DNA of 48,274 nucleotides, taken from NCBI RefSeq assembly GCF_001467025.1, contig NZ_LNXV01000011.1, positions 100,715 to 148,988 of the forward strand, given 5' to 3'. The translations under genes and the position numbers were made by a program. Below are positions 2,752-45,372 of the stretch, piece after piece (within the stretch, counting starts at the first letter, position 1; every line of letters starts with the position of its first letter). Under the pieces are notes generated by a model. It made no database searches and was not told the origin of the DNA. It saw only the letters and a program-made list of their open reading frames with translations. This DNA comes from Legionella brunensis (GTDB taxonomy: Bacteria; Pseudomonadota; Gammaproteobacteria; Legionellales; Legionellaceae).

Positions 2752-2761
2752 GAACTTAAGT

Positions 2762-3688: not shown

Positions 3689-3730
3689 TTCAATCTGTTA
3701 TCGATTTTGAACATTTGACTAAGGGATTAA

Positions 3731-4870: not shown

Positions 4871-4940
4871 TATTTCAAGGATGGAAGAGTTGAGTGAATA
4901 TGCTATAGTCATCATTCGCGTTTGATAGGGAAGGTTGAAG

Positions 4941-4965
4941 AGATTTAGCCTATTGAACTAAATCT
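4941..4965. other. Short inverted repeat before the TolC-like gene
   Basis: AGATTTAG (4941-4948) and CTAAATCT (4958-4965) pair perfectly over a 9-base loop. They lie in the 145-base gap between the permease and the TolC-like gene. No run of T follows on either strand, so a terminator is unlikely. A regulatory hairpin or operator is possible but unproven. Confidence 0.25.
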
Positions 4966-5015
4966 ATGACAAGACACTTCATCCATATTGTTAGTTTCAT
5001 AAGACGGACATTCTA

Positions 5016-10722: not shown

Positions 10723-10749
10723 AATTTTACCTTATCTAAACTCGTCAAA

Positions 10750-11559: not shown

Positions 11560-11705
11560 GTTTAATCCAAAATTAAGAAAGTTGGTCAATTATCAGCGAT
11601 TAATTTGCAAGGTTTCAATGCTTAAGACTCTATAAAACTAAAAATAGCGTAAAAACTCAATGAAACCTCAAGGAATCTTGCCAGTTATTTTACATAATTA
11701 TAGAC

Positions 11706-11734
11706 TTGAAAAGGAAGCAACTAACCTATATATA
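11706..11734 (+). promoter_or_regulatory. Probable sigma-70 promoter of the YccA-like gene
   Basis: TTGAAA (11706-11711) and TATATA (11729-11734) are separated by 17 bases. The AUG at 11771 lies 36 bases further on, with GGAG at 11761-11764. The spacing is ideal and the boxes are near consensus. Confidence 0.5.
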
Positions 11735-11770
11735 TGCTAAACTAGCAGTATAAATAATCTGGAGCTATGC

Positions 11771-12445: not shown

Positions 12446-12463
12446 AATCATCTCCTCAACTTG

Positions 12464-12492
12464 AATCCCGGTGAGTTTGCCGGGATTTTTTT
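12464..12492 (+). terminator. Rho-independent terminator after the YccA-like gene
   Basis: AATCCCGG (12464-12471) pairs with CCGGGATT (12480-12487) around an 8-base loop. The T run extends to 12492. It lies 18 bases after the stop codon at 12445. Confidence 0.85.
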
Positions 12493-12518
12493 ACCCCTAT
12501 TTTTCGGGAGCGGTTAAC

Positions 12519-13493: not shown

Positions 13494-13745
13494 AGAAAAT
13501 TAATTATAAAGATTCATAATAATGAACTTGATTAAACAATTACAATAATGGATGAAATAATAAGCATCATGAAGATGCCTAGACCAAAACCCAATTTGTA
13601 TCATATTTCTACAAAATAGGCAATAAAAAACCTAAAATCTAGCTGCATTACCCTCGTAAACGACCAAATATCAACCAACCTGATAATTTATGTTCTATAC
13701 TCACAAGATTACATTATTTTCACACTTTAGCATGGCTGGTTTATC

Positions 13746-14651
13746 ATGAGCGAACCTCAATTGCATCTCTATAGAGACCTAACTGCACCTGAAAAATTGT
13801 ACAGCATCGCTATTGTCTGGATTCCATTAATAGCAACTTTATATGCTATTTTCTCTGGGATGCTTTTTTCGATAAATCTAGCCACATTACTATTATTAAT
13901 AGGATGCTATAGTTGTACAGTTTTAGGGATTACTGTGGGTTTTCATCGTTTATTGACTCATCATTCTTTCAAAACAAAACGATGGGTTAAAATAGTTTTA
14001 ACTTGTTTAGGTTGCATGGCCTATGAAGGACCTCCCTATTTCTGGATAGCCGCCCATCGAAGACACCATAAATTCACAGAAACAGCCTCAGACCCACACT
14101 CACCTGTTGCAATGAATAAAATATCCCTGCGAAGTTTTTATCATGCACACATGGGATGGATGAGTAAACACACTATCGAGGACTGGCACTATTACATCGC
14201 CGATTTGCTCGCCGATCGAGATTTAAAAATTATCAATAAATACTATATACCAATAGCCTTAAGTGGATTAATTATTCCTGGAATTATTAATGGATTGATG
14301 TTTATGAGTTGGTATCACTTCATAGAAGGAATTATCGTTTGCGGTCTGGTAAGGGTTTGCATTCAACAACACGTTACATGGTCAATCAATTCTATCTGCC
14401 ACATATGGGGTAAGAAAAATTTTATAACGCAAGATCATAGCCGGAATAATTGGCTTTTTGCAATTTTAGCTTATGGAGAAGGTTGGCATAATGGCCATCA
14501 CGCTTTTCCAGCATCTGCTAAACATGGGTTGAAAAAATGGCAACTCGATATTTCTTATGGCTTTATTTTTTTGTTATCACTTATTGGACTAGTTACAGAG
14601 ATTAAGTTGCCTACTCAAGAACAATTGCATAAAAAATCTATCAAAAAATAG
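13746..14651 (+). CDS. Membrane fatty-acid (acyl-CoA delta-9) desaturase
   Basis: This is a di-iron membrane desaturase that introduces a double bond into acyl chains. The three histidine boxes are complete: HRLLTHH (67-73), HRRHH (104-108) and HNGHH (248-252, in GEGWHNGHHAF). Hydrophobic pairs lie around residues 20-62 and 165-205. At 301 residues it is of the short bacterial type lacking a fused cytochrome b5. It is transcribed alone, with a 251-base spacer upstream in which I see no clear promoter. It would adjust membrane unsaturation. Confidence 0.95.
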   Translation: MSEPQLHLYRDLTAPEKLYSIAIVWIPLIATLYAIFSGMLFSINLATLLLLIGCYSCTVLGITVGFHRLLTHHSFKTKRWVKIVLTCLGCMAYEGPPYFWIAAHRRHHKFTETASDPHSPVAMNKISLRSFYHAHMGWMSKHTIEDWHYYIADLLADRDLKIINKYYIPIALSGLIIPGIINGLMFMSWYHFIEGIIVCGLVRVCIQQHVTWSINSICHIWGKKNFITQDHSRNNWLFAILAYGEGWHNGHHAFPASAKHGLKKWQLDISYGFIFLLSLIGLVTEIKLPTQEQLHKKSIKK

Positions 14652-14857
14652 TAGAGCTTTAAGCAATCTAAAGCCTAGTCTAAAAATCAGATGCAAAAAG
14701 TAGAAAATGCAAAAATTCCTCAATAATAAATGACATTAGCCTAATAAAACCACCTCATTTATACACGTTACCAGCGATTCGGGCAAAAAAACAAGAATAC
14801 TCAATATGTACTATATTTAATCAATATTAAGTAATTTTTTTCTTGGATTTCCTGGCA

Positions 14858-15748
14858 ATGAAGCATAAAGACTTACTTAAGATAGCAGAACATATTCGGG
14901 CAGAGGTTTCTCTTTTTTTACCCTATAGTTCAAATAATATTTCTTTAACTGATCAACCCTTTCATAGAGTATTTTGGATAACTGCTATGCGTGCTCGTTC
15001 AGATGAAGAGGGGATTCGTGAAAGAATTCGTCAGTGGAAAATGAACTTAAAGGCTGACAACGTTGATACGCAATTTAAATCATTAAAAGTAACAGCAAAA
15101 ATACCTAACAATCCATCTGAAACCCCTACTCTTGAAGAGTGGCACAAATATATCAGCACACTACCTAAACGTGCCCTCAAAATCCAACATAAAGACGGTA
15201 CGCCAATAGAGCCTAATCATCGTACTGAAGCAAGGGCTAAAAATGCCATTAAATTTGGAATTGGTAATTGTGGTGAAAAAGCGGCTGTTGCCTTTTCCCT
15301 GCTTCTTGAATATCCCAAAGAAGGCTTAAAAAAACTGATGCCTCTCTCCCGCTCTATTCCTATGGAAATCGTTTCTCTAAGTGGTAGTGATCATACATTT
15401 CTTGTGTTGGACAGAGATCCAAAAAGTGATTTACAAGATATGTCTACCTGGGGACCAAACGCAATTATTTTAGATCCATGGATGGATAGTGTTGTTTCTG
15501 TCACAGAAGAACTTCAGAAATCAGAGAATAAACGCTCAGGCTGTTTTAAGTATATCTCTAAATACCAAGGAGAGCTGGTACTTGAGAACAAGGGGAACAT
15601 AGGACAAGGTCATACACAACGCTGGGATGAACACCGTAAGAAAAAAAATGAACCTACTTTGCTAAGAGAATGGTCTTTTTTTTATAAACCAAAGAGCAAA
15701 GAGAAAGAAAATGTCCCTTGGGTCACTCCACCTAAGAGCATGAAATAA
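14858..15748 (+). CDS. Unknown protein with apparent Cys-His-Asp (papain/transglutaminase-like) triad
   Basis: No named family is recognised. The 296-residue protein has an ordered set of motifs suggestive of a cysteine hydrolase or transglutaminase-like fold. They are C138 at a helix N-terminus (GIGNCGEKAAVAFSLLLE), H179 in a beta strand (GSDHTFLVLD) and D206 (AIILDPWMD). The N-terminal ~120 residues are helical and charged, and the C-terminus is Lys-rich. There is no signal peptide or membrane segment, so it is cytosolic or delivered by a leaderless route. The frame opens at a TTG at 14843, but ATG 14858 is more likely, with TTGGA 10 bases upstream. It stands alone, converging on korB. A translocated effector is plausible but not shown. 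Confidence 0.7.
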   Translation: MKHKDLLKIAEHIRAEVSLFLPYSSNNISLTDQPFHRVFWITAMRARSDEEGIRERIRQWKMNLKADNVDTQFKSLKVTAKIPNNPSETPTLEEWHKYISTLPKRALKIQHKDGTPIEPNHRTEARAKNAIKFGIGNCGEKAAVAFSLLLEYPKEGLKKLMPLSRSIPMEIVSLSGSDHTFLVLDRDPKSDLQDMSTWGPNAIILDPWMDSVVSVTEELQKSENKRSGCFKYISKYQGELVLENKGNIGQGHTQRWDEHRKKKNEPTLLREWSFFYKPKSKEKENVPWVTPPKSMK

Positions 15749-15781
15749 TTAACGGAATTTTTCCTCATTTACAGTAATCAT

Positions 15782-16759
15782 TTATTGGCTTTTGCCTTCC
15801 TGCTGCCAGCAAGCTTTAGCACGGAACAAGGTTGCTAAATCCGTACTTGATTTTTTAAGCGGCTTATTTAAAGTGAAGATTTCACGCTCTTTTTGATAAT
15901 ACACCCCTAAAGGAACTGGGAATTCTGGGAAAGTTAAACGTGCTAACCGCATAGCAGCAATAAAACTACTGGAGTCATGGCGATAAGCCGCTTCACCATG
16001 TGCCTTACGTTGTAGTACCTCGTCCTCTAAGTCTAGAGCCCATTGTTGTTCGGCTCCAAACGCTAAAGGTTGACCCTCTGTCAAAACAATAGTTTGCTCA
16101 GCGCGATTGTTTTTTACAGCAAACGCATCAAAAGCACCATTATTAAAAATATTGCAATCCTGGTAAATTTCAACAAATGAACAACCTCGATGTTCATAGG
16201 CTTGCTTAATTACTGAAGCCAGGTGATTAGGATCTTTATCCACAGCTCGGGCAACAAAGCTTGCCCCTGATGCCAATGCAATCGTCAGTGGATTAACAGG
16301 CTCATTATTAACGCCCTGTGGAGATGTTTTTGTAACTTGCCCTTTTTGTGAAGTTGGCGAAAATTGTCCCTTCGTTAATCCATAAACCTGATTATTAAAT
16401 AGCAAAATATTAACGTTAACATTTCGTCTTAAACAATGAATTAAATGGTTACCACCAATGCTTAACGCATCTCCATCACCTGTTATAACCCAGACAGTTA
16501 AATCATCACGCATAGCTTTAAGGCCGGTAGCCACAGCAGTAGCTCTTCCATGAATTGTGTGGAAACCATAGGTATTCATGTAATAAGGTAATCTTCCTGC
16601 GCAACCAATTCCTGAAACAAATACATGCTTCTCAGGAGGTAAGCCTAACTCTGGAAGCACGCGTTGCAAAGCAGCCAAGATCGCATAATCGCCACATCCT
16701 GGACACCATCGTACTTCGGTGGAATTAGTAAAATCCTCGCGTTTATACGTATTGTTCAT
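15782..16759 (-). CDS. korB: 2-oxoglutarate:ferredoxin oxidoreductase beta subunit
   Basis: This thiamine-pyrophosphate subunit, with KorA, oxidatively decarboxylates 2-oxoglutarate (or another 2-oxoacid) using ferredoxin. It carries the [4Fe-4S] cysteines C19 and C22 (WCPGCGDYA), C53 (GIGCAGR) and C202 (YQDCNIF). The TPP/Mg motif GDGDALSIGGNHLIHCLRRN and FNNQVYGLTKGQFSPTS are also present. The frame extends to a TTG at 16765, but ATG 16759 has GGA 8 bases upstream. It overlaps the end of korA by 17 bases, implying coupled translation. No ferredoxin gene is next to it. Confidence 0.94.
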   Translation of the reverse strand: MNNTYKREDFTNSTEVRWCPGCGDYAILAALQRVLPELGLPPEKHVFVSGIGCAGRLPYYMNTYGFHTIHGRATAVATGLKAMRDDLTVWVITGDGDALSIGGNHLIHCLRRNVNVNILLFNNQVYGLTKGQFSPTSQKGQVTKTSPQGVNNEPVNPLTIALASGASFVARAVDKDPNHLASVIKQAYEHRGCSFVEIYQDCNIFNNGAFDAFAVKNNRAEQTIVLTEGQPLAFGAEQQWALDLEDEVLQRKAHGEAAYRHDSSSFIAAMRLARLTFPEFPVPLGVYYQKEREIFTLNKPLKKSSTDLATLFRAKACWQQEGKSQ

Positions 16760-18560
16760 GATCAATTTCCAATTTAATGGCTTTAACCAAATGACTTACT
16801 GTAAAGGGTTGACCGTTGCATTGATTAATTGATCTAGCATCCACTAGATAATTCGCTCGCAACATTTGACATAACTGACCTGAATTTAACTCAGCCACCA
16901 AAATTTTATCATATTTGCTAAGTAACTTGCCTAAATTTTCCGGTAATGGATTTAGATGCCGTAAATGAAGAAATGCCACAGCCAATCCTTCCGCTCGACA
17001 CTGATTAACAGCAGACTTTAAACTGCCGTAAGTACTACCCCAACCAATCAATAAAGTCGTGGCATTATCATTACCTTCAATAGCTAAAGCGGGATATTCA
17101 CGCGCTATACCAGCAATCTTATCAGCTCGAAGCTTTATCATTTTTTGGTGATTCTCAGCATCATAGCTGACCCTTCCCTCTTCTCCCTGCTTCTCCAAGC
17201 CACCTAATTGGTGAATAAATCCAGGGGTACCAGGCACATTCCAACTACGCGAAAGAATTTCGTCACGTTGATAAGGTTTGGGAAAACGATTGAAATTCAT
17301 GACAGGGATTTCCAAAGACTCAACATCAGGGATTTTCCATGGTTCTGCTGCATTAGCCAGATATGCGTCTAGTAAAACAATCACAGGTGTCATGTACTTA
17401 ATAGCCAAAGCAAATGCTTCCATGATGGTATTAAAACAATCAGAAGGCGATTTAGCCGCAAGAACTGGCAATGGTGCCTCCCCATGGCGACCATAAAGGG
17501 CTTGTCGTAAATCACTTTGACCAGTTTTAGTCGGCAATCCAGTTGAGGCACCAGCACGTTGCACATCCACCAAAACCAAAGGCAACTCTGCCATTACTGC
17601 AAGTCCTAAACTTTCACTTTTTAAATCAAAACCGGGACCAGAGGTACAAGTCAGAGCTAAACATCCTCCATAAGCAGCACCAATGCAAGCACAAATTGCT
17701 GCAATTTCATCTTCTGCTTGCAGCAGTTGTACACCGTAATCCCCCAGCCTTGCGCATTCATGCAAAATAGCTGACGCAGGAGTAATTGGATAACCAGACA
17801 CCAACAATGGAGTTTCTGTTCCTGTGGCAAGCGTTGCAATGGCTAATGCAACAGCCTCAACACCCGTGATTTGTCTATATTCCCCATTCTCCCGACTGAC
17901 TTGTCCTAACATAAACTGTCGTCGAGACAACTCTAACGTCATGGCATAATTAAAGCCTGCAAGCAAAGTTAATTCATTGGCCTTGGCAATTTGAGGATTG
18001 GTTTTAAATTTCTTCTTAATAAACTCCACACAACTCTCTGTGGGTAAATCAAATAACCAAAGTACTAAGCCCAGAACATAAAAATTTTTAGCTTTCTTTG
18101 CTTGCGCATGACTTATCTCTAAGGAGACCACTGCTTGCAATGTTTGAGTTATCAATGGCAGAGAGACTAACTGATAATGCTCAGCAGCATTATCCAGAAA
18201 GTCTTTGGTCATCCCGGCCTTTTGCCAGTCTTTCTCTTGAAAACTATCTTCGTTGATAATTAATAAACCACCAGCACTTAAGTATTGCAGTGAATTTTTT
18301 AAAGCTGCAGGGTTTAACGCTACTAATACATCAAGCGACTCACCTGCAGTAAAAATAGCTTGTTCTGACATCGCTAATTGAAAACCAGAGACACCGGCAA
18401 CCGTTCCCGCAGGAGCTCTAATTTCTGCAGGGAAATCCGGAAGAGTTCTTACATCCCTGCCTGTTAGAGCAGCAGTAATTGTTAGCTGCTCGCCAACAAG
18501 CTGCACCCCATCACCAGAATCACCTGTTAATCGTATAACGATAGCGTCAGTATTTGACAT
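16743..18560 (-). CDS. korA: 2-oxoglutarate:ferredoxin oxidoreductase alpha subunit (gamma-alpha fusion)
   Basis: At 605 residues this is the fused form, with the gamma domain first ([19 protein letters not shown], residues ~1-190) and the alpha/pyrimidine-binding domain after about 230. Landmarks are [51 protein letters not shown] and [21 protein letters not shown]. With KorB it forms the oxidoreductase that can replace or supplement the 2-oxoglutarate dehydrogenase complex. Its first codons overlap the last 14 bases of pdxJ, and its end overlaps korB, so pdxJ-korA-korB form one tightly packed transcript. Confidence 0.94.
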
Positions 18561-23128: not shown

Positions 23129-26100
23129 ATGGTCGAAAAAAAAATAAGCGGTGAGCGACAGCAAATCCCTATTCCCTTACAGGTTAAACCCACCCACGAA
23201 GCCATACCCACCATTACAGGCTCTGCAATCAGTAGTCAAGCAGGCACAGTATTGTATGGCTACTACAACATGGACTATAGGCTTCCAGGAAACGATTATC
23301 TGCGTATTTTTGCAAACCATAACAAGAAAACTGTCCAAATATTATTACTTACCCATGATCCCCAAAAATTACAATCTCTGCCCGGTGCTCGCCCTTCTTC
23401 TTTAGTAGCAAATACCATAGCTCAAATCAATCGTTACTGTATTCGTTCCAATCATTATCAACAACCACGCACACAAGTCCAAGAAGCTAAATATCAACTT
23501 GCTTTAGACTGCATTAAGAAATTAAGTCAACTACTCCCCTCAGAACGAGACTTGGCAAGCGATAATTGGGCAGGTCAGGAAGCATTACGTACCAAAGTAA
23601 TTGCGACTCTTGAAGAATGTCGCGGTAATAATTTACTGATTGCTACAAATCCCATTGTTTCTGAAGGAGTTTTAGATGGCCTACTTTACGAGGCACGACA
23701 GACAGCCCAGCATTATCAATTTAATCGTGTTCATCCAGTATGCAGGCTTGATCAACTTGATTTTAATCACATGAGAGAGGGAAACACGTTTGTATGGGAT
23801 AGTGAATTACACATAGGTCAAGATGAAGAGGCGCTAAATGACACTATCCGCGTCATTTGCCGACAATATAACCTGGTTCCCCCCGCTTCATTAAGCAACA
23901 TCCCGGCAAATCGCTTTAAGCGTTTGGAGTTATTTTTACAAAAACTCTGGCTTGATGGGCGTGATTGGATAAATCACTTGGCAACCCCTAAAAAAGCCAC
24001 TCAGGATACTGAAACGGATACACGAGCAGATGGTTTATCGATTACTAGGATTAAACCCTACTACCAACTACACGGTCTTACTCAAGTTGGATATTCAACC
24101 TTAGAACAATTAATGGCAGGTATCAGCAAACACAAAACTCCTACACATATTAAAGCCAATTCAGTTGAGGAAGCTAAGAACTGGTTAACAACTCGTCCAA
24201 ATGGAGACTGGGTTGAATTGCCTTCCCGACAAGTAATAATACGATTAGACGATGACCTGGCTACGATTAATTACTTTGAGGAAAAGGGCCTATTTTACCC
24301 TTTGCCTCAAGGCGAAGATCTATATATCCTAAGCCAGCTGGGGAAACATCATCTTTATTTGCCCGAACGAGCCAGCTTACAACTCAAAGCTTTTTTTTCA
24401 CGCTTACCTATTTTTTTTAGTCATCTATTTCAGCGCATCAATCAATTTACTCAGGATTTATACAAAGAATTCTTTAAGCATATTCATACACAACACGAAG
24501 AACTGAAGCCTCTTGAAGAAGAATCCTCTAAAGAAAGAACTACTCATCGCCGTTCAAGTTATCTGCAAGACGCCTTATATGCTCATGGTTTATTAACAGA
24601 TGGATTGACGTTGGAAGATTTTGTAAAAATTCAACTCAAAGAAAATAGTTACACCATCGTACGGGAAATGCATCCTCCAAGTCCTCCGCCATATGAAAAC
24701 CCCTTGCATCGATTTTTGGGGGTTTTACGACATATTGGTGGTTTTTTTGTAGATACCAGCGAAAAAAATCCAATTCTTGGTAGTTTAGCAATGGCGGCTT
24801 ATGCTTATGGTGCCGGAGCTGTAATTGCACCAGAAACTCTCACCTCTATCCTGATGAAGTTGCATCTTAATGGTCTAACCTATGGGATAAAACCAACCCA
24901 AGCATTGGCTAAATGGATGAGCCATGGCACTACTTCTGAAGCAGTTTCAGCAGCAATGACTTACTGGCAAGGTGTCGTCGTTGGTGGTGATCTCGATCAA
25001 TTTTTTATTAAAGCAATCAGCTTGCTAAAAGAAGAGCCTGCAGAAGTAGCAATCGTTGTCGCGTTAGCAATAAGTTTGGGCTACGGATTGTGTAAAACCA
25101 TCCCCACCCTTGAAGAAGAAATGGGATATTTTCCCTATATAAATTATGCGGCATTAGGAGCAAAAGGAGGTGCGGCTATCTATGATACGGTTATGCACCC
25201 TGGTGATGATTGGCTTCTCGGCTCAATTAAATGGCTACTTCGCGGGGCATTAAACATCGCCAAACTGATTGGCGGTCCCTTCGTTGAAGCTTATTATTAT
25301 GGTTATCATAAGGGATTTATCTCTGGTTTAAAAAAAAGCCGAACTTTATTTATTAACACAAGCAAGCAACTGACTGCAGCACTCTGTGATTTCTTTCTGG
25401 CAATAACTACTATTCCATTACTTGAGCTTAGTTCTTTATTTATTCATGTTCCTTTTAGAGGAATAACAAAATTTATGAGTAAAACGTTGGCCATTCTTGG
25501 AAATTGGCAAATATTAGGAAACATTTTAATTGAATTCGCCACTCGTCCTAATAGTTGGGGTTATTTGCCAGGCTTTCGTTTATCGCCACTCTATGGCTTT
25601 AGCAGCCCAATTCAGCATTACGCACAAAATCAATGGCTCAATATTTCAGTCAATATTGCAATGCTTCTTATCTGGCCGCCCTTTTTACTTCTTAAAAATC
25701 TGATTATATTACCAACGATTGATGTTTTATTTTTTCTGATTCGTTTTACTTTAACCCTTCTGGATCCTATAAGCCGCATATTTGCCTTAGGCGTTGGCTA
25801 CTCGTTAACAGTAGCTGGGATAATTTGGGACAACTCTTTAGGGCGTTTACTCCAACTCACAGCTTACGCGATTACTTTAGGCAGTAATAAACTTGATAAT
25901 TTTGCAGGAAATATTAAGCAGCAACTCGTTGCCGAGATACAAATTTGGCGCCGCACCCTTTATCATTGGGCATTTAGCGAAGAAGAAAAGAGTTTACATA
26001 AAACAAATACAGACGTGGAGTATTGTCTTCTGGATCCGATGAGAATAGAACGGTTACCGCATTCTTCAACAGGATGTGTACTTAAAAAGCTTCTTAGTAA

Positions 26101-26221
26101 TACTTTGCCCAATCTGGAATCGTCTGAAAATAATCCACAGCATACGACTTTATTTCATCCAAGATCCGACGATCACTCGCCAATAACAGCACTACAGGAA
26201 ACCCCAACCATTCATGCGTAG
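23129..26221 (+). CDS. Large unknown protein with hydrophobic C-terminal half, candidate secreted effector
   Basis: No family is recognised in this 1030-residue protein. Residues 1-440 are soluble, with mixed alpha/beta content. A charged stretch (447-476) and a Pro-rich patch (PPSPPPYENP, ~516-525) follow. The remainder to ~900 is hydrophobic, with likely membrane-associating segments near 548-568, 638-655, 745-773, 838-873 and 882-900. The last 80 residues are hydrophilic. There is no N-terminal signal peptide. Leaderless proteins with long soluble N-termini and membrane-inserting segments are common among Dot/Icm-delivered proteins of Legionella, so an effector role is a fair hypothesis but is not shown. 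It is transcribed divergently from era. No strong ribosome-binding site precedes the ATG. Confidence 0.6.
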   Translation: MVEKKISGERQQIPIPLQVKPTHEAIPTITGSAISSQAGTVLYGYYNMDYRLPGNDYLRIFANHNKKTVQILLLTHDPQKLQSLPGARPSSLVANTIAQINRYCIRSNHYQQPRTQVQEAKYQLALDCIKKLSQLLPSERDLASDNWAGQEALRTKVIATLEECRGNNLLIATNPIVSEGVLDGLLYEARQTAQHYQFNRVHPVCRLDQLDFNHMREGNTFVWDSELHIGQDEEALNDTIRVICRQYNLVPPASLSNIPANRFKRLELFLQKLWLDGRDWINHLATPKKATQDTETDTRADGLSITRIKPYYQLHGLTQVGYSTLEQLMAGISKHKTPTHIKANSVEEAKNWLTTRPNGDWVELPSRQVIIRLDDDLATINYFEEKGLFYPLPQGEDLYILSQLGKHHLYLPERASLQLKAFFSRLPIFFSHLFQRINQFTQDLYKEFFKHIHTQHEELKPLEEESSKERTTHRRSSYLQDALYAHGLLTDGLTLEDFVKIQLKENSYTIVREMHPPSPPPYENPLHRFLGVLRHIGGFFVDTSEKNPILGSLAMAAYAYGAGAVIAPETLTSILMKLHLNGLTYGIKPTQALAKWMSHGTTSEAVSAAMTYWQGVVVGGDLDQFFIKAISLLKEEPAEVAIVVALAISLGYGLCKTIPTLEEEMGYFPYINYAALGAKGGAAIYDTVMHPGDDWLLGSIKWLLRGALNIAKLIGGPFVEAYYYGYHKGFISGLKKSRTLFINTSKQLTAALCDFFLAITTIPLLELSSLFIHVPFRGITKFMSKTLAILGNWQILGNILIEFATRPNSWGYLPGFRLSPLYGFSSPIQHYAQNQWLNISVNIAMLLIWPPFLLLKNLIILPTIDVLFFLIRFTLTLLDPISRIFALGVGYSLTVAGIIWDNSLGRLLQLTAYAITLGSNKLDNFAGNIKQQLVAEIQIWRRTLYHWAFSEEEKSLHKTNTDVEYCLLDPMRIERLPHSSTGCVLKKLLSNTLPNLESSENNPQHTTLFHPRSDDHSPITALQETPTIHA

Positions 26222-27066: not shown

Positions 27067-29112
27067 ATGGCTAACACAACCAAAATCACTGAAGCATTAC
27101 GTGTGCAAAGCACCCTTGAGGGGAGCCCCAAAAAGTCTATGGAAAACGCACTCGAGATGAGCCCCAAAAAGTCCATGGGGCAAAAACAAATTTCTCCCTC
27201 TCCTTCCAAAGAAGATGAATCAATCCAACTGAGATCCAAAGCAGGGAACTCTGTCAGTTTAACTGCATCGCAATTGGAGAAATGGTTTGCAACTCTGGAG
27301 GCAAGAGAGTTAAAACAGGATAGAAAAGAAAAACATATCTATCACCCTAATGATCCCGAAGTAAACCCTTCTTACCTGGCGACAATATACCTTAGCCGTT
27401 ATGGTTTGAAGACAGCAAAAGATGTCATCACTTTCCTAAAGTCACCGGCTGGACGTGATGTTCAGGCCATGATTGGCGAGCGATTGGCCGAAATTGCCTC
27501 TATCGAAAATGAAATTCATCAACAACAATTAGATGCAGAAACCAGAAGACAACGAGCACTAGCGGCTCTCCTCTTAGGTTTACTTTATGAAAAAGAAGCC
27601 GAAGCCAAAATAAAGAACGCTGAAATACAAAAAGACATTGATAAAAAATTGCATCATACAACTGAGACTACAAGCGGGTCTACCTCAAAAAGCGAAGCCT
27701 ATGCAGCTGTAGCTGCCTATTCGGAATCTATTGCTGCTCTGGAGAAAATTTTAAAAGACAAAGTCAAAGAATCAGAGGAGCTCGAAGAGGAATTCGATAA
27801 GCTTGATGAACTGGCACTAGAGATTGCAAGTCGCTACCATCATCTGGATCAACATATTACGACACTTGATCATTTTGGGCTGCTAGTAAATTCGTTTTAT
27901 ATGAGCCATGAAGAGCGGATCAAAGCAATAGAAGCTCTCGAAGCTAAAATTAATCAGCTTAAAGGTCAAACTACTTCAAGCGCTGAAGCTGAACAAACAA
28001 GCCCTCATGAGCAAATCAGCACGATGTTGATTACCCTCTCCCTTATGCAAGCACAACTAAAATCACCAACTTCTACAATAGAGCTCATGGAAGCAAGGGC
28101 TAAGGATCTCGAAAAAACCCTGAAAAAACAAGCTAACAGTATTGGCGATTTACTTGCAGGTAATAGCGACAATAGCGAAAATGTTGAAAGTAGCGAAAGT
28201 AGGGAGCAACGAGCTAAACAGTTGCTTCATGAACACAATGGCCTACATGTTCAATTTGCAGGCCTCAATGATATGATTGGTGTGATGAAAGGAGAGAAAA
28301 AACTCTGGGACAAGCAGGGCCAACCAGTCACTTCCATTGATAAAGCTGCTTTTGTAATCTCTTCCAAAAAATCCCTTGTGTTTCATCAAGGTGAGTATTA
28401 TTTACTGAATGGCGAAGCCCCTGAAAACTTTGACGAGCTACCTCAAAAAGTCAAAGACGAAGCTAAAAGAAACTTCGATCAAGCTCGTCCAGAAATTACC
28501 AGTTTAAAAAGGCTCGTTCACCATAATAAACAATTAGAAGAACACGATTTCAGCCAAAGAAAAGAAGACCTTACTCAACGTAGCGAAATCATGCAAAAAG
28601 AAATGTTACTTCTTACCAATCAACTTACAAAACTTCAGTCTTCCAAGGCCAATATGGAAATCTTAATACAACAATTAGACAAACAAACGTCAAATGTTGA
28701 TACAAATACCACACCTTCTGTATCCATCCCAACACTTAAACCAACTTTGAGTAAGGGGTCAAAAACGACAACAAATAATAATACTGCGGCTTATGTGCAG
28801 GGTTATAAACATACATTGTTATTGATGAGAAATAACCCTACCCCTGACTCAGTGCAGCGGCTAAGAAATTTTTTCATGGGGCCTGATGGTAAAACACCAG
28901 TTCCATCCACCATAGAAACTATTCTTTCTAGTATTAAGTACGGTAGGCCTATACCGTTGCAAACCATGCAAAATTTGTTGCAAAACATGAATCGCTTAGG
29001 ATTAGCAATGGCCGGACCAAACAGGAGAGCGCTCCAAACTCCTGAGTTGATCGAAGAAGTAAATACTGCTCCATCCCCTTTTAAAAGAAATCTCACGCCA
29101 AAACCTTACTAA
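27067..29112 (+). CDS. Coiled-coil unknown protein, candidate effector
   Basis: This 681-residue protein has no family I recognise. Residues 20-25 and 32-37 are two copies of SPKKSM in a basic N-terminal tail. Residues ~50-135 form a small domain (NPSYLATIYLSRYGLKTAKDVITFLKSPAGRDVQ). Long heptad-rich helices follow at about 130-200, 215-300, 330-360 and 500-545, alternating Glu/Lys with Leu/Ile. The C-terminal ~100 residues are helical, beginning AAYVQGYKHTLLL. There is no signal peptide or membrane segment. GAGGG lies 7 bases before the ATG. The make-up resembles leaderless coiled-coil substrates of the Dot/Icm system, which is inference. The gene is bracketed by a palindrome upstream and a hairpin downstream. 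Confidence 0.65.
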   Translation: MANTTKITEALRVQSTLEGSPKKSMENALEMSPKKSMGQKQISPSPSKEDESIQLRSKAGNSVSLTASQLEKWFATLEARELKQDRKEKHIYHPNDPEVNPSYLATIYLSRYGLKTAKDVITFLKSPAGRDVQAMIGERLAEIASIENEIHQQQLDAETRRQRALAALLLGLLYEKEAEAKIKNAEIQKDIDKKLHHTTETTSGSTSKSEAYAAVAAYSESIAALEKILKDKVKESEELEEEFDKLDELALEIASRYHHLDQHITTLDHFGLLVNSFYMSHEERIKAIEALEAKINQLKGQTTSSAEAEQTSPHEQISTMLITLSLMQAQLKSPTSTIELMEARAKDLEKTLKKQANSIGDLLAGNSDNSENVESSESREQRAKQLLHEHNGLHVQFAGLNDMIGVMKGEKKLWDKQGQPVTSIDKAAFVISSKKSLVFHQGEYYLLNGEAPENFDELPQKVKDEAKRNFDQARPEITSLKRLVHHNKQLEEHDFSQRKEDLTQRSEIMQKEMLLLTNQLTKLQSSKANMEILIQQLDKQTSNVDTNTTPSVSIPTLKPTLSKGSKTTTNNNTAAYVQGYKHTLLLMRNNPTPDSVQRLRNFFMGPDGKTPVPSTIETILSSIKYGRPIPLQTMQNLLQNMNRLGLAMAGPNRRALQTPELIEEVNTAPSPFKRNLTPKPY

Positions 29113-38709: not shown

Positions 38710-39372
38710 TTAGAAGCCATAAGCAAGACGTAAACCTACTGAGTAAAGAAAAGGAAAATAAGCATCTGTAGGATTTAACTGAGCTTCCCCATAACCTGCC
38801 GTATAACTACCGCCAAGCTCAGCCATGAAATGCTCAGTAACATGATAATTTAGACCAGCCCCAAAAGTCGGGCTTAAGCGCCAATCATTAACAAGCATAT
38901 CGTTTCGATGTACACCTGCAGCTCCCACACTGGAATAGATTCTAAGCCTTGTATTGGAAATAGGCAGCATAATTTTGCCTTTCAAATCCACCGTTTCTGT
39001 CTTTGTTTTAAAGGTTGTCAAATTGTCATTCATGAAGCTAAACAGACTCATCGGATCAAATGATACATTCGCATCGGGATAGCGCATGTAACTTAATTCA
39101 AATGCTAACTGTGGAATAAACTCATAGCCAACAAAAACTCCCCATACACCTCCCCCTTCAGTAACTTTAATCGGGGTGGACATACTCAGTGCTGCATTCT
39201 GATTTTCCTTCAAAGGCACTAATCCTTCCCAAGTGGTTGAACCGTAACCACCAAATACACCAATATAGGGAGGGTGTGACAATTTCGAGTTCGTTTGCAA
39301 AGCCGCCTGACATCTTAGAGAACAAAACGATAACAGCAGTAAAGTGAATAATACAAATTTTTTAATAATCAC
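38710..39372 (-). CDS. Outer-membrane beta-barrel protein (OmpA/opacity-like)
   Basis: This is a small outer-membrane barrel. A signal peptide (KKFVLFTLLLLSFCSLRCQAA) is followed by alternating amphipathic strands ending in the C-terminal aromatic (LRLAYGF), the signal for barrel insertion. Segments such as PYIGVFGGYGSTTW, WGVFVGYEFIPQLAFELSYMRY and FGAGLNYHVTEHFMAELGG are typical of the opacity/porin-like family. The frame is open to 39450, but the GTG at 39372 sits just before the signal peptide with AGAG upstream, giving 220 residues. It lies 68 bases downstream of the Cys-rich gene on the same strand. Ligand or pore function is unknown. Confidence 0.8.
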   Translation of the reverse strand: MIIKKFVLFTLLLLSFCSLRCQAALQTNSKLSHPPYIGVFGGYGSTTWEGLVPLKENQNAALSMSTPIKVTEGGGVWGVFVGYEFIPQLAFELSYMRYPDANVSFDPMSLFSFMNDNLTTFKTKTETVDLKGKIMLPISNTRLRIYSSVGAAGVHRNDMLVNDWRLSPTFGAGLNYHVTEHFMAELGGSYTAGYGEAQLNPTDAYFPFLYSVGLRLAYGF

Positions 39373-39440
39373 AATAAAACACTCTTTAATGTCTTGACTA
39401 TCTGAAGCAGAAAGCCAAGACGTAAATGTCAAAAACCAAA

Positions 39441-39785
39441 TTACTGACATGCTTTCTTATTGGAGCTACAAAGTCTATTACGAGAGTCTACCCCCCCATA
39501 AAGATAGCAATTCCAATTATCCATACAGTCTTGAGGGCTGGTATATTGCTGATATTCACATGCCTTTTTTAGCGAACCAAACACGCTTACCATACGTGAA
39601 TAAAGTGCATTCATATCCTGGCACATACCCGATGGTAATCCTGAGGATGTGCAATAGCAGGTAGCTACTGACTTAAACGAAGCACAGAAGCTGACATCAT
39701 TGGTTGGCAAGGCATTTGGACATGCAGCAAAAACTGAACAAACAAAACCATAGAAAGAAACAACTGCAAAGATTTTTCTTATCAT
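39441..39785 (-). CDS. Small cysteine-rich secreted protein, unknown function
   Basis: This is a 114-residue protein with a clear signal peptide (MIRKIFAVVSFYGFVCSVFA) and a mature part of about 94 residues containing ten cysteines, probably five disulphides formed in the periplasm. It has no family I recognise. The Cys pattern is spread evenly (FCASF, TCYC, GMCQD, KACEY, QDCMD, WNCY, RLCSS, KACQ). The gene lies 68 bases upstream of the outer-membrane barrel on the same strand, suggesting co-transcription and a shared envelope role, which is inference. Confidence 0.7.
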   Translation of the reverse strand: MIRKIFAVVSFYGFVCSVFAACPNALPTNDVSFCASFKSVATCYCTSSGLPSGMCQDMNALYSRMVSVFGSLKKACEYQQYTSPQDCMDNWNCYLYGGVDSRNRLCSSNKKACQ

Positions 39786-39862: not shown

Positions 39863-42800
39863 TTAATGTTGAGGCAGGTTTACATTAATTAATTTAATCA
39901 CTTCTTTAGCTATTAACTCTCGAAAAGCCGGTTGTAAATTTGCAGATATAACTAAAAAAGGGGCATCTGAGTCAATCATGCGAAAAAAACAAGCATCAAA
40001 TAAATTATCTATTTTCAATAAATCATCGTGAGAACTTCTTATATCTTGGGTTTTTAATCCAAAAAAACCAGCTTTTTCTCTTTTTTTAAAATTCGCCAGG
40101 AAACTATTCTGCACATTCAGGTTGATAAGAAAATTATTTCCTTTTGCAGAACTTAGCCTCCCACCTAGACTAAAGACTCTACAGTTTAATTTCACAGAAC
40201 GAAATATCTTGGTGTATAGCCAAACAAAAAACTTAATCAAAAACCCTTTAACTCTACTTTGCATCCGTTGAAATGTACCTATACTTGCAAGTTTTACCAA
40301 ATTTGGACACCCTTGATAAGGGTTTGTATTAATCACAGACTCATGAACCTCTTGGGCTAATGACGTTAATGTGGAATTTTGTTTCAGTATCAATTTAACA
40401 GGCTCAATTCTGAGAAAACACCCCACCACATTGTCATAACATTGACTATTTCGCGTAGATTTTACTCTATTCACACAAATAGAGTGGGAAATTTGTTGAG
40501 AATCATGACAACAATTGAGCAAAGCCAACACCATGACGGCACACAAACCATCCAGAATGCTAATATGATTATGCGCACAAAATAGTTGAAAATTACTCAA
40601 AGCGTCTTCAGGTATTTGCATATAGGTTGAATAGGTCAGTTGTTGGGCTTGCATATTTTTAATGACTTGTTCTGGAGGAAAAACAAATAAAGAGGTGTCT
40701 TTTAAATACTCATCCCAAAACACCATATCGCGATCTAAATGTTTCTGAATATAAGATTGCTCATCAAATAGGTAGGTTCTATAAGCTATATCTCTCTTTG
40801 ATTTTTTTATTTTTTTGCCAGAAACATAAAATTCAGATAAATCGGATAGCAAGATTTCAGGCGAAACATCATCAAAAATAATGTGGGGGAAACAGATTTG
40901 CAATTCAGTGAAATCATCCTTAAGGTGAAACAATCGCAATATTATCTGCGGTGAGCCTTTAGGCCAGGGATAAGAGGTAATTAATTGGTGACTGGACTTT
41001 TCTAGCATCAACTCAGATTCTTCTTCAGAAAAAGATTCAAGATTGGTCTCCATCACCTTAAAGGCTAAATTTTTTTGTAACCGTTGCGCAGGATAAAATT
41101 TGGATATTTGAAAACATAATATTTCATGCTTGTGGCAAACAGACTCTAATGCCGTGGTTAGACGAGCACCATCAAGGCGTCCTTCGAAGCGTTTTCTTGT
41201 AAATATATTTAATTTTTTCGCTTTTGGCTCGAACGTATCTGCCAACCATAAGAGAAGCTGAAAATCACTTAAGGGAAGCAATGCATCCTCTTTTTTGAAA
41301 GCCTGGCTTAGTGCACGATGTCGCTTCCTGATCGTTTTGGCCTTTTTTATTAAGGGAGCTAGATTAGTAATGGTCGGAGCATGATAAAAATCATGCAAGG
41401 AAATTTCTTTGCCTAGTTGATGGTTTATTTTTGAAACCACTCTCGCTGCCGATAGTGAGTGTCCTCCCAACTCGAAAAAATTATCTTTAAGCCCTATTGG
41501 CTTTATCTCCAGTTCCTCAGACCAAATTTCTGCAAGCATTTTTTCTAATGTTGATTTGGGTTCCAGATAATACTGACCTACGGTAAACTGAGGTGCTGGT
41601 AATGCAGACCGATCTAACTTCTCATTAGCATTTAAGGGGAAAACATCCATTTTAATAAAAGTGACAGGAATCATATATTCCGGCAAATGACGCTGCAAAT
41701 ATTGACGCAGATCACTGCCATCTACATCGTTGTTTAAATCTTTAAGGACGTAATAGGCTACTAATTTTTTATTCTTTTGGAGTCCTTCAAAAGCTAATAC
41801 CGCCGCTGCTTTTAAGGCAGAGTGCTTAAGCAAACAACTCTCGACTTCAGCAGGCTCAACTCGAAATCCCCGTATTTTTATTTGATGGTCGATTCTTCCT
41901 ATACATTCGATTTCTCCTTGAAGTCGACGGCATAGATCACCAGTTTTATATAGCTTCGCAGCAACATCATTGTCGAAGGGATCCTTAATGAAATATTGCT
42001 CAGTTAATTTTTCATTATTTAAATACCCCCTTGCCAGGCAACTCCCGCCAAGATACAACTCACCAATATCACCCTCAACAACCGGGCGAAGATGTTTATC
42101 AAGGATATAAGACTTCACATGTGGAGCCACTTCCCCAATGGGAACATTCGCCCCCAAATTATAGATGTTTTTTTCATTAATTTTGTAGAGGCAAACCGCC
42201 ACACTTGTTTCAGTAGGGCCATATTCATTAAATAAAACATGTTGGGGATACAGGGTTAACCAAGACTCACAATCAGCCGTCGACAAAGTTTCTCCAGCCA
42301 GCATAATTTTTTCTAAATCAGGCAAGTCGACACGCTTATTTTTTACTTCATATAACAAAACTTTAAAATAGCTAGGCGTTAGTTTAATAAAATTAACTTG
42401 ATGAGTGACCAAATATTTAAGGTACTGCCGTGGATCTTTTTTATTCTTATCCGTACAAATAACGACGGTTAAACCAAGCATTAAAGGGATAATCGACGTC
42501 GTTAACGCAAAATCGAAAGCATGATTAGAAGAAAAATCGATACGCTCCTGCGGTTGGCAATCACAATATTTAGCAAACCAAAGCGAGTAATCCACTACAC
42601 CTCGATGCTCAACTAATACTCCTTTAGGGGCGCCAGTAGAACCGGAAGTATAAATAACATAAGCCAAGTGACGTGAAGTTACCGCTGAGGCAGGATTATC
42701 TGTTTTTTGTTCTTTTATTTTCGCCTCTTTGTTCAGGACTATTTTTCCTTGGTAGCGAATAAATTTCTTCTCCAAAGAATTCGTTGTGATTAAGAATTGA

Positions 42801-43147
42801 GTAGAACCTTCGTGCAGAATCAGTAGTAATCGCTCTTCTGGATGTGATGAATCTAATGGCACATATGCCCCACCCGCTTTCAAAACACCAAGCATAGCTA
42901 TCAATAGTTCAATAGAGCGCTCCATACACAAAGCCACTGTTGTATCCGGCTTTATACCTATTTCTTGCAAATAATAAGCGAGTTGATTAGCCTTTTGATT
43001 CAATTGCTCATAAGTTATAGCTTGCTCTGCAAAGATGACTGCAATATCCTGAGGTCTCTGCCTGGCCTGCATCTCAAATAACTCATGCAAAGTCTTTGAG
43101 TTTTCCATCTCAATTTTTTTATCCCTTTCTATACTTGTTTGATTCAT
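39863..43147 (-). CDS. Single-module nonribosomal peptide synthetase (A-PCP-C)
   Basis: Three domains are visible. The adenylation domain (~20-515) has YTSGSTGAPKG, NEYGPTE, YKTGDL, RGFRVEPAEVE and catalytic Lys511 in NEKLDR. The carrier domain (~530-600) has LGGHS with Ser565 as the phosphopantetheine site. The condensation-type domain (~625-1095) has PHIIFDD in place of HHxxxDG, keeping the active-site His and the Asp. There is no thioesterase, reductase or epimerase domain. FDFA at the A4 position carries the usual substrate-binding Asp213; the amino acid is not predicted. ATG 43147 overlaps the MMPL stop by one base (a GTG at 43150 would overlap by four), so the two genes are translationally coupled. 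The product is unknown. Confidence 0.9.
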   Translation of the reverse strand: MNQTSIERDKKIEMENSKTLHELFEMQARQRPQDIAVIFAEQAITYEQLNQKANQLAYYLQEIGIKPDTTVALCMERSIELLIAMLGVLKAGGAYVPLDSSHPEERLLLILHEGSTQFLITTNSLEKKFIRYQGKIVLNKEAKIKEQKTDNPASAVTSRHLAYVIYTSGSTGAPKGVLVEHRGVVDYSLWFAKYCDCQPQERIDFSSNHAFDFALTTSIIPLMLGLTVVICTDKNKKDPRQYLKYLVTHQVNFIKLTPSYFKVLLYEVKNKRVDLPDLEKIMLAGETLSTADCESWLTLYPQHVLFNEYGPTETSVAVCLYKINEKNIYNLGANVPIGEVAPHVKSYILDKHLRPVVEGDIGELYLGGSCLARGYLNNEKLTEQYFIKDPFDNDVAAKLYKTGDLCRRLQGEIECIGRIDHQIKIRGFRVEPAEVESCLLKHSALKAAAVLAFEGLQKNKKLVAYYVLKDLNNDVDGSDLRQYLQRHLPEYMIPVTFIKMDVFPLNANEKLDRSALPAPQFTVGQYYLEPKSTLEKMLAEIWSEELEIKPIGLKDNFFELGGHSLSAARVVSKINHQLGKEISLHDFYHAPTITNLAPLIKKAKTIRKRHRALSQAFKKEDALLPLSDFQLLLWLADTFEPKAKKLNIFTRKRFEGRLDGARLTTALESVCHKHEILCFQISKFYPAQRLQKNLAFKVMETNLESFSEEESELMLEKSSHQLITSYPWPKGSPQIILRLFHLKDDFTELQICFPHIIFDDVSPEILLSDLSEFYVSGKKIKKSKRDIAYRTYLFDEQSYIQKHLDRDMVFWDEYLKDTSLFVFPPEQVIKNMQAQQLTYSTYMQIPEDALSNFQLFCAHNHISILDGLCAVMVLALLNCCHDSQQISHSICVNRVKSTRNSQCYDNVVGCFLRIEPVKLILKQNSTLTSLAQEVHESVINTNPYQGCPNLVKLASIGTFQRMQSRVKGFLIKFFVWLYTKIFRSVKLNCRVFSLGGRLSSAKGNNFLINLNVQNSFLANFKKREKAGFFGLKTQDIRSSHDDLLKIDNLFDACFFRMIDSDAPFLVISANLQPAFRELIAKEVIKLINVNLPQH

Positions 43148-45372
43148 CACAATACAGGCAAAAATCTATCTAACCATTTGGGTAAATACCAGTTCCATGT
43201 TTTAAGAAGCGCCATTGTGGAGGGCACTAATAAAGTTCGAATCAAGAAAGCATCCACAAAAATAGCAACTGCTATGCCAAGACCAAATGCCTTCACCATT
43301 AAGACATCAGCTACTAAAAAAGAGCCGCAAATAAAGATGACGATGACAGCCGCACTTGTGATAATGCGACTACTTCTTTCAATGCCAAAAACAATACTGT
43401 TATTGTTATTACCACTTTCCTCATGTGCTTCCTTTATTCTAGTTAATAAAAATACCTCATAGTCCATAGAAAATCCGAATAAGGCGCAAAAAATGATAAC
43501 CAGTAAACTAATATCAAGCATTCCTTGTGGTTCAAAATTAAGATATTGCGCCAAATAGCCATCCTGAAAAACTAAAACCAAAGCCCCATAGCAAGCACTA
43601 AGGCTTAATAAATTCATTATAATGGCTTTAACCGGCAACAATAATGAACGTAATAAAATTAACAAGATGAGATAGGTAAAAACAATAACCCAAAGAATGG
43701 CGAAAGGAAGGATGCGAGAAATACTTTCAAGAACCTCTACATTAATCACGGGAGTTCCAGTTAATTGCATTTTCATCCCAGAGGCCATTTTCGTATCGCG
43801 TAGATTTGTAATCAATTCTTTGGTTTGAGGTGAGTTAATATTATATTTACTAACAACGCTCATTACTGTAAATGAGTAGCTAGTCGTAGTCGCCAGTAAT
43901 TGCTTTAGATTGTTATCCAGTAATTTTCTATGCAAATTATATAAATCATAATACTGTTTTTTAGTTAGCTTGGAATCTGTAGTAACAACACTGTTAATTT
44001 GGTCAATGTCGGAATTTGCTTTAAGCTGTTGCGCTAAATTATACATATGGGAAATATTATTCTTTGATAAAATGTAGCTATGGGGTGTTTGAATTAAGAC
44101 AAGAATAGGGGTTAATGTTTGTACATTAAATTTTTCAGAATAAGTATTAAAAAAATCTCTACTTTCTGAATTTTTAGGGAGAATCTTATAATCGGAAACA
44201 CCAAACTTTGCCGACAACAGTGGGTAACCAAGCAACAGCAAGAAAATAAGGATTGGAAAGAAGAATACCAGAGGACGTTTGGTCACTTTTTCCGCCAGCC
44301 AATGCCAAAATTTAAAGTGCTTGATTTTATTTTTTCTGCCAAATCGCACCGACAATAAGTTTATTCGTGTGTTAAGCACTGCCAAAATCGCAGGTAGTAA
44401 AATGATTGCTGTACCGGCTGCTATTCCAACAGCTACAAGGCCACCTACTGCAACGGAAAACAAGATATTAACAGGAAACAAAAATAGGGCACTAAGGCTT
44501 ACAAAAACAGCTAAGCCACTAAAAAAGATAGCTTTCCCTGCTGTTTCTTCAGTTATTGCTATTGCCTCTCTTATAGTGACCCCATTATGCAACTCCTCAC
44601 GAAAACGACTTATTACGAACAGGGAATAATCCAAACTAAGACAAAGTCCTAATAGTAAAGCAATATTTAAAGTGAAGATTGAAAGTGTACACACATGTCC
44701 TAAAAAATAGAGAATAGTAAGAATTATTAATGCACATCCTCCACCTAAAACAATAGGCAACAATGCTGCAACAAGGGAGCCGAAAATAAAAATTAAAGTG
44801 ATTATTGCTACAGGGGTTGCAATAAAATCAGCCCGATAAAGATCAGTTTGTGTTTGCTTATTGACATCCTTTACAAAAATAGCTTGGCCTCCTAGCGAAA
44901 CAGCCATATTAGATGGCTTTTTTATGGCTGCTTCAAACTGTGACAATAGTCGTGCATCAAGAGGTTTGCTACCTTTTACCATTACAACGACATAAGCTGT
45001 GTGTTTATCTTTTGAGATTTGCTTTTTATTATTGTTCGGAAAAAATATTTCATGCTTGATTGGAAAATCCTTTAATTCCAGTAATGATTTCTTTATCTTT
45101 TTGATAAATAGAGGATTGCTTGCTAGAAGATTAGGGCTTTTATAAATAATTAGAAATTTATTAACGTTGTTATATTCCAGTTTTTTATTCAAATATTCCT
45201 CTGCTTTAGCACTTTCAGAGCTTTCGTCAATAAAACCTGTCGTCTTAAATGGACTAATAACATTAGGCAGAAACGGGATACACGCAACAACAAAAAATAA
45301 CCACCACACAATGAGATACCATCGTAATGGATAAATTATTTTGCCCAATCTGTAAAAAACATGATTTTGCAT
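43147..45372 (-). CDS. MMPL/RND-superfamily transporter
   Basis: This is a 741-residue inner-membrane protein of the MmpL type, which in mycobacteria and other bacteria exports lipids, lipopeptides and siderophores using the proton gradient. The first membrane segment (YLIVWWLFFVVACIPFL) is followed by a periplasmic loop of about 150 residues, then five segments (~185-330) with GLCLSLDYSLFVISRFREEL. A second periplasmic loop and second set of segments (~560-720) contain GFSMDYEVFLLTRIKEAHEE. The paired Asp-Tyr motifs in both halves are the proton-relay signature of the family. It is the first gene of a two-gene operon with the NRPS, implying that it exports the NRPS product. Confidence 0.93.
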   Translation of the reverse strand: MQNHVFYRLGKIIYPLRWYLIVWWLFFVVACIPFLPNVISPFKTTGFIDESSESAKAEEYLNKKLEYNNVNKFLIIYKSPNLLASNPLFIKKIKKSLLELKDFPIKHEIFFPNNNKKQISKDKHTAYVVVMVKGSKPLDARLLSQFEAAIKKPSNMAVSLGGQAIFVKDVNKQTQTDLYRADFIATPVAIITLIFIFGSLVAALLPIVLGGGCALIILTILYFLGHVCTLSIFTLNIALLLGLCLSLDYSLFVISRFREELHNGVTIREAIAITEETAGKAIFFSGLAVFVSLSALFLFPVNILFSVAVGGLVAVGIAAGTAIILLPAILAVLNTRINLLSVRFGRKNKIKHFKFWHWLAEKVTKRPLVFFFPILIFLLLLGYPLLSAKFGVSDYKILPKNSESRDFFNTYSEKFNVQTLTPILVLIQTPHSYILSKNNISHMYNLAQQLKANSDIDQINSVVTTDSKLTKKQYYDLYNLHRKLLDNNLKQLLATTTSYSFTVMSVVSKYNINSPQTKELITNLRDTKMASGMKMQLTGTPVINVEVLESISRILPFAILWVIVFTYLILLILLRSLLLPVKAIIMNLLSLSACYGALVLVFQDGYLAQYLNFEPQGMLDISLLVIIFCALFGFSMDYEVFLLTRIKEAHEESGNNNNSIVFGIERSSRIITSAAVIVIFICGSFLVADVLMVKAFGLGIAVAIFVDAFLIRTLLVPSTMALLKTWNWYLPKWLDRFLPVL

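What the first reader, a model, noticed from the sequence alone, without database searches (positions are those of the whole stretch)
39863..45372. Translationally coupled NRPS (A-PCP-C) and MMPL exporter
A two-gene unit with one amino-acid-activating module, a terminal condensation-type domain (PHIIFDD) and no thioesterase suggests that the C domain releases the product onto a free acceptor (amine or alcohol), with direct export by an MmpL-like pump. This parallels acyltransferase-MmpL lipid systems of mycobacteria and may be an undescribed small lipopeptide or amino-acid conjugate pathway.
Basis: partly seen in the sequence, partly recalled or inferred. Interest (0 to 1): 0.7.

Follow-up and report, generated by a model that had tools for sequence, protein, structure and literature searches.

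The report
Amino-acid synthetase with its own exporter
Many bacteria of what is most probably the Legionella family share a four-gene cassette in which a one-module peptide synthetase probably hands a single amino acid (asparagine or glycine) to an unknown acceptor and an envelope transport set probably carries the product outwards; it would matter as a dedicated, uncharacterised envelope pathway.

Summary
The two genes are real: an A-PCP-C synthetase (N, 39863-43150, -) and an MmpL3-like exporter (M, 43147-45372, -). The unit is larger than reported: it continues with a small secreted ten-cysteine protein (S, 39441-39785) and an OmpA-like barrel (O, 38710-39450). The order M-N-S-O recurs in relatives. 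Of 143 family genomes N occurs in 84, M in 105, O in 107 and S in 107; 80 hold N, M and O. In 8 of 14 genomes tested, one of them a single contig, this C domain is the only condensation domain, so it is not a mid-chain module. Its nearest relatives are terminal C domains of very large synthases of the same family (one checked: a polyketide synthase). Both have Pro/Ser-His-xxx-Asp instead of His-His-xxx-Asp-Gly and form a supported group apart from 34 other C domains. The A-domain code is asparagine-like in 60 and glycine-like in 12 of 75 relatives. Best reading: the C domain releases one amino acid onto a diffusible acceptor and the product leaves through M, S and O. Acceptor and product are unknown. 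The A-T-C gene was noticed in 2016 ('Cluster F'); I found no description of its partners. VibH/PapA kinship and conserved coupling are not supported.

The parts
43147..45372 (-). M: MmpL3-like RND/MMPL exporter, 741 aa, with both Asp-Tyr pairs (D248-Y249, D637-Y638; their role as proton relay is recalled)
   Evidence: Pfam MMPL 6.9e-73; best solved match MmpL3 at 262 bits against at most 97 for MmpL4/5; the four residues are conserved in at least 97% of 53 aligned
39863..43150 (-). N: single-module synthetase A-PCP-C, 1095 aa as drawn (GTG); relatives suggest the ATG at residue 15
41618..43078 (-). A domain, code DFTKMAEVAK (Asn-like)
   Evidence: code families from PMC12283262 passages
41357..41536 (-). 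PCP carrier domain, GGHS serine site
39866..41305 (-). terminal C domain with a C-terminal part of about 145 residues beyond the usual match
40868..40888 (-). motif PHIIFDD: second His (H756) and Asp (D760) conserved, first His is Pro or Ser
   Evidence: 61 Pro and 14 Ser of 75 aligned; H756 and D760 in at least 97% of 75
39441..39785 (-). S: small protein with a signal peptide (by eye) and ten conserved cysteines, 114 aa
   Evidence: no Pfam or NCBIfam family for the window copy; alignment of 37; model helical, block means of pLDDT 91-97 from residue 21
38710..39450 (-). O: OmpA-like outer-membrane barrel without a peptidoglycan domain, 246 aa as drawn (relatives start further in)
   Evidence: OMP_b-brl 3.1e-12 and OmpA_membrane 1.3e-11; E 0.037 to solved OmpA

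Best explanation
This is a conserved cassette that makes and exports an amino-acid conjugate. The A domain activates one amino acid (asparagine most likely here; inferred from the code) and loads it on the PCP. The terminal C domain, of a release type shared with large synthases of the same family, uses its conserved His to transfer the aminoacyl group to a diffusible amine or hydroxyl acceptor, so no thioesterase is needed (inferred). A lipid acceptor is the most likely because the partner M is MmpL3-like (inferred). M moves the product across the inner membrane and S and O handle it in the periplasm and at the outer membrane (inferred from linkage only). Shown: domain make-up, motif conservation, grouping of the C domains, absence of other C domains in several genomes, and linkage of the four genes.
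For: Architecture. N's C domain is the only Condensation hit at E 0.001 in 8 of 14 genomes. The closest other C domains are terminal ones in ten family genomes (motif PHII[VL]D[DGE] in all ten; in nine the match runs to model position 478-482 with 9-26 residues left, in G148 it stops at 388). In the one checked with Pfam (L168) the protein is a PKS (KS, KR, DH domains) with an ACP just before the C domain. Nine of these ten (G035 was dropped as a duplicate) join 21 A-PCP-C rows in one group, support 98/90, apart from 34 other C domains. Two different donors before the same terminal domain favour release. H756, D760 and R900 are conserved in at least 97% of 75. N occurs with M in 81 and with O in 82 of 84 genomes, M with O in 102 of 105; of 80 genomes with N, M and O, 42 have all pairs within 6 kb. 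Linkage survives in several orders: M-N-S-O in 32 of 91 loci, N-S-O-M in 2, N diverging from M with O convergent in 7 (one genus), M facing O-S followed by N in 1. S is directly upstream of O in 50 of 53 loci with O; for the other three, where the fetched stretch ended, one search places S next to O.
Against: No acceptor gene is in the unit. M and O occur without N in 22 genomes, and 16 of these 22 have no terminal-type C domain at 1e-30 (several are incomplete), so M-S-O does something without N. In 20 of 80 genomes only M and O are near each other and in 10 none of the pairs is. G108, 100% complete, has N and a PKS-type C but no M, S or O. Five genomes with the PKS-type C lack M, S and O (G139, G148, G129, G121, G037). 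The C-domain structure could not be predicted. Relatedness inflates the co-occurrence p-values. The tree holds no VibH, PapA or fungal CT row and its outgroup was gathered by similarity to this model.
Confidence: 0.5

Rival explanations
1. M-S-O is an older, general envelope transport set with its own substrate, and N is only a frequent genomic neighbour that uses it or merely travels with it.
For: M and O without N in 22 of 143 genomes, 16 of the 22 with M and O within 6 kb; 16 of the 22 (not the same count) show no terminal-type C domain at 1e-30 (G089 is counted among them, its five matches end by position 392); four loci from N-less genomes show M facing O and S (L127, L128, L133, L136).
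Against: N is rarely without M or O (3 and 2 of 84) and lies beside them in four different orders.
Confidence: 0.25
2. The C domain works the other way: it N-acylates the PCP-bound amino acid with an acyl-ACP or acyl-CoA donor, giving an N-acyl amino acid freed by hydrolysis or by an outside thioesterase.
For: Codes read as Asn and Gly, both known heads of N-acyl amino acids (recalled); no acceptor gene in the unit.
Against: The sister domain in L168 is terminal after an ACP in a PKS, where release is the natural role; here too the domain is downstream of the PCP, not upstream.
Confidence: 0.15
3. Self-condensation: two amino acids are joined by one module used twice, giving a dipeptide or diketopiperazine.
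For: Iterative use of single modules is discussed in Tobias et al. 2016 (section 17); the C domain resembles peptide-forming types by sequence.
Against: The PCP would have to serve as donor and acceptor; the PKS sister has no A domain in L168; an MmpL3-like pump suits a lipid better than a dipeptide (inference).
Confidence: 0.08

Closest known systems
Legionella 'Cluster F' (Tobias et al. 2016, PMC5126622, section 20)
   Same: Single-module A-T-C synthetase, called the most prevalent cluster in 15 Legionella genomes and not limited to a clade
   Different: The main text has 0 occurrences of MMPL, RND or exporter; no product predicted in the sections read. Identity with our gene is inferred from architecture and prevalence; figures and tables not seen
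C-terminal condensation domain of a Legionella PKS (Tobias cluster I, Fig. 3 legend; here L168, L169 and others)
   Same: Pro-His-xxx-Asp motif, terminal, match over nearly the whole model, one group with ours
   Different: 22% identity over 410 positions; polyketide donor in L168; M, S and O absent from five of the ten genomes that carry it plus G108
MmpL3 trehalose monomycolate exporter
   Same: Best solved relative, both Asp-Tyr pairs
   Different: NCBIfam equivalog score 309 against a cut-off of 1400; substrate unknown
VibH-type amide synthase (1l5a) and PapA5
   Same: Condensation fold; release onto a free acceptor is what I propose here too
   Different: 46 and 19-25 bits against 100 for surfactin synthetase; ours is fused to A-PCP and lacks the first motif His
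Surfactin/bacitracin/tyrocidine peptide-forming C domains
   Same: Best solved sequence matches
   Different: Listed matches end near model position 340 of 485; ours is terminal with a changed motif

Membership tests
Single-module NRPS (A-PCP-C) | A, PCP with Ser site, C, no TE or reductase | tested here: met
   GG[HN]S in 75 of 75 aligned
Mid-chain NRPS module | Other condensation domains in the same genome | tested here: not met
   N holds the only Condensation hit in 8 of 14 genomes (G005, G017, G026, G045, G141, G166, G096, G098); in the other 6, the own genome among them, there are others
Canonical condensation domain | HHxxxDG | tested here: not met
   first His is Pro (61) or Ser (14) of 75; second His and Asp kept; Gly in 4 of 75
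Terminal C of the family's PKS | PHxxxD motif, terminal position, same group in a tree | tested here: met
   PKS domains checked in one
Terminal C of the family's PKS | Chain release by transfer | not testable with these tools
   inference, with the remark in the Fig. 3 legend of PMC5126622
VibH/PapA free-standing acyltransferases | Free-standing and closest by sequence | tested here: not met
   fused to A-PCP; low scores
MMPL-type RND exporter | MMPL domains and Asp-Tyr pairs | tested here: met
MmpL3 equivalog | NCBIfam cut-off | tested here: not met
   309 of 1400 bits
Tobias 'Cluster F' | Same gene as drawn in their Fig. 3 | not testable with these tools
   text only; architecture and prevalence agree
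Asn-activating A domain | Code near DLTKxGEVGK | tested here: inconclusive
   window 6 of 10 positions, relatives up to 9 of 10; reference code recalled; PMC12283262 passages treat DLTKIGEVGK in the Asp/Asn section

The most novel reading that the evidence does not exclude
A dedicated synthesis-to-surface line for an aminoacylated envelope lipid in a Gram-negative family: an assembly-line enzyme whose terminal C domain aminoacylates a membrane lipid, an MmpL3-like exporter, a new family of disulfide-rich periplasmic carriers (S) and a dedicated barrel (O) at the outer membrane, with the amino acid switched between Asn and Gly between genera. It would be a Gram-negative counterpart of mycobacterial lipid assembly and export.
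Probability: 0.3. Interest if true: 0.75.

Novelty: new variant of a known kind. Interest (0 to 1): 0.5.

Why it matters
If right, a family of bacteria recalled as living in amoebae carries a conserved pathway for an amino-acid conjugate that goes to the cell envelope, made by an enzyme kind usually linked to secreted peptides. It gives a defined set of four genes, a predicted amino acid and a testable enzyme type (terminal PHxxxD C domain), and it links an orphan cluster noted in 2016 to an exporter and two envelope proteins. S has no Pfam entry for the window copy and among 369 genomes drawn from the class was found only in the 4 hits of this family.

Tried and rejected

Rows dropped before counts: N rows were limited to 900-1200 aa, at least 800 query residues, above 300 bits, duplicates removed (75 rows kept of 123 hits, which include repeat loci), so the A-PCP-C layout of those 75 is partly chosen. 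For the C-domain alignment, rows over 85% alike, short or with stops or X were left out, and one of the 69 references (L087) was not passed on, by oversight (68 used). For the tree 21 of 75 A-PCP-C rows were used, C domains under 45 bits and repeats were dropped, and the G035 copy fell out. One multi-module hit (G019, 8244 aa) was left out of the presence counts, and pieces of one gene (G168 and G025 for M, G110 for O) were entered as one interval of coordinates. Thresholds differ between genes (1e-150, 1e-80, 1e-8, 1e-4). The 91 loci are loci, not genomes; some genomes gave two or three.
Full report
What is there. The two ORFs exist as described. The 1095-aa protein is A-PCP-C with no thioesterase or reductase listed, and the 741-aa protein is an MMPL exporter. 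The host is most probably a member of Legionellaceae: the own genome carries IcmQ of the Dot/Icm system (234.8 bits, in none of 14 control genomes) and one phosphopantetheinyl-transferase-family hit, as Tobias et al. 2016 report for Legionella (abstract and section 11). No genome used here is named, so the family name is an inference and the species is unknown.

The unit is larger than two genes. Downstream on the same strand lie a 114-aa protein with a signal peptide by eye (S) and an OmpA-like barrel (O). Their homologues sit in the same place in relatives. Of 91 loci fetched around N or M that hold at least one of the four genes: 32 show M-N-S-O (one with O split in two), 31 N alone, 7 N diverging from M with O convergent, 4 M facing O-S without N, 3 N-S-O, 3 M alone, 2 N-S-O-M, 2 M-S-O, and 7 single cases of other kinds. 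Many N-alone loci are short contigs or places far from M. S is directly upstream of O in 50 of 53 loci with O; in the other three the fetched stretch ended first and one search finds S next to O.

Distribution. N is found in 84 of 143 family genomes (E 1e-150), M in 105 (1e-80), O in 107 (1e-8), and S in 107 of the 143 drawn as the order (1e-4; the listed handles are the same). N co-occurs with M in 81 and with O in 82 of 84 genomes, M with O in 102 of 105. Of 80 genomes with N, M and O, 42 have all pairs within 6 kb, 20 only M with O, 10 no pair, 5 only N with O, 2 only N with M, 1 N with M and with O. Fisher p-values (3e-14, 1e-14, 1e-23) ignore relatedness; that the linkage survives in several gene orders is the better evidence. 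Against exclusivity, 22 genomes have M and O without N. Among them one search finds an A-PCP-C-type C domain in G076 and fragments in G144 and G036, a PKS-type one in G035, G137 and G041, and none at 1e-30 in 16 (G089 counted there: its five matches end by position 392). So M-S-O has a role of its own or other suppliers. G108 has N without M, S or O. S was found in 4 of 369 genomes drawn from the class, all four of this family (at most 12 candidates scored per genome).

The synthetase. In 75 aligned relatives the PCP site is GG[HN]S in all. The C motif has Pro (61) or Ser (14) in place of the first His and Gly after the Asp in only 4; the second His and the Asp are kept in at least 97%. The ten-residue code is DFTKMAEVAK in the window. 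60 of 75 share the Lys/Glu pattern D..K..E..K close to asparagine codes, 12 read as glycine (nine exactly DILQLGMIWK), one as serine and two are unclear. PMC12283262 (passages only) gives DILQLGMIWK for glycine domains and treats DLTKIGEVGK in its Asp/Asn section; the other reference codes are recalled. The glycine type includes seven species of one genus that keep N, M, O and S together in the divergent order, so the amino acid differs while the partners stay.

Not a mid-chain module. A search for Condensation domains in 14 genomes found N's as the only one in 8 (G005, G017, G026, G045, G141, G166, G096, G098). G005 is one contig, 100% complete, and has no other match to N at 1e-30 with 9 of 9 candidates scored. 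G017 does have other A-PCP proteins but no other Condensation hit. The own genome has three further hits, one below cut-off.

What kind of C domain. In the class-wide search the listed matches outside the family end by position 362 of 485. Matches that run on belong to the A-PCP-C proteins and to large synthases of this family, 2,598-3,800 aa in the ten genomes seen, where the domain is terminal and has a PHII[VL]D[DGE] motif. One of these was scanned with Pfam and is a PKS with three ketosynthases and an ACP just before the C domain (L168); that the other nine are PKS is inferred. In a tree of 64 rows the 21 A-PCP-C and 9 PKS-type domains form one group (98/90) apart from 34 other C domains. 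The Fig. 3 legend of Tobias et al. 2016 says that such a terminal C domain of a L. pneumophila PKS can release the chain. The shared place at the end of the protein, after two quite different donors, is the main reason to read this domain as a release enzyme. The acceptor is unknown.

The partners. M is nearest to MmpL3 among solved proteins, with both Asp-Tyr pairs kept, but far below the MmpL3 equivalog cut-off. S has ten conserved cysteines and a variable distance between the likely cleavage site and the first of them, which argues against a lipoprotein (by eye); its model has mean pLDDT 85.7 and is helical with high confidence after residue 20. O has only a weak match to OmpA. A lipid-carrier role for S and a surface role for O are inference from linkage.

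What was known. Tobias et al. 2016 (abstract, section 11 part 1, sections 17 and 20, and found passages; figures and tables not seen) report Cluster F, a single-module A-T-C synthetase, as the most prevalent cluster in 15 Legionella genomes, with no product predicted in the text read. That is very probably this gene. The listings of searches in the open PMC library showed no description of M, S or O with it and no product; subscription papers are not covered. PMC11828895 (passages) surveys clusters of L. lytica; those passages do not mention it.

Verdict. Real, conserved, partly known as a gene, and new to me as a four-gene unit with a distinctive terminal C domain. Product and acceptor stay open.

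Noticed in passing
window 2-1585 (-), 1819-6377 (+); L035, L036: A FAAL-like AMP-binding protein, ACP-C proteins, a TauD oxygenase and an ACP-reductase (Pfam), with what looks by eye like an HlyD/ABC/TolC export set: a separate lipopeptide-like gene set about 38 kb from the unit.
   Followed up: partly
L168:1609-12870, L169:1777-13119 and similar loci: Synthases of about 2,600-3,800 residues ending in a PHxxxD condensation domain in ten genomes of the family; L168 is a PKS with three ketosynthases.
   Followed up: partly
L128, L133 compared with window 9280-18560: In one distant genus the M-O-S genes sit beside TldD-like, BI-1-like and KorAB-like genes, which also lie in this window about 20 kb from the unit: a possible ancestral neighbourhood (names by eye, not searched).
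   Followed up: no
L004:1390-2652: Stand-alone protein with weak AATase, Condensation and PapA_C matches in the same genome.
   Followed up: no
window 23129-26221 and 27067-29112 (+): Long ORFs without a family that I could name by eye; not searched.
   Followed up: no
L118:920-10342: Several N-like ORFs in a row in one genome (G088), two with unclear specificity codes.
   Followed up: no
G109, G136, G080, G135: Some genomes carry two A-PCP-C genes, e.g. G136 with one near M-S-O and one elsewhere.
   Followed up: no
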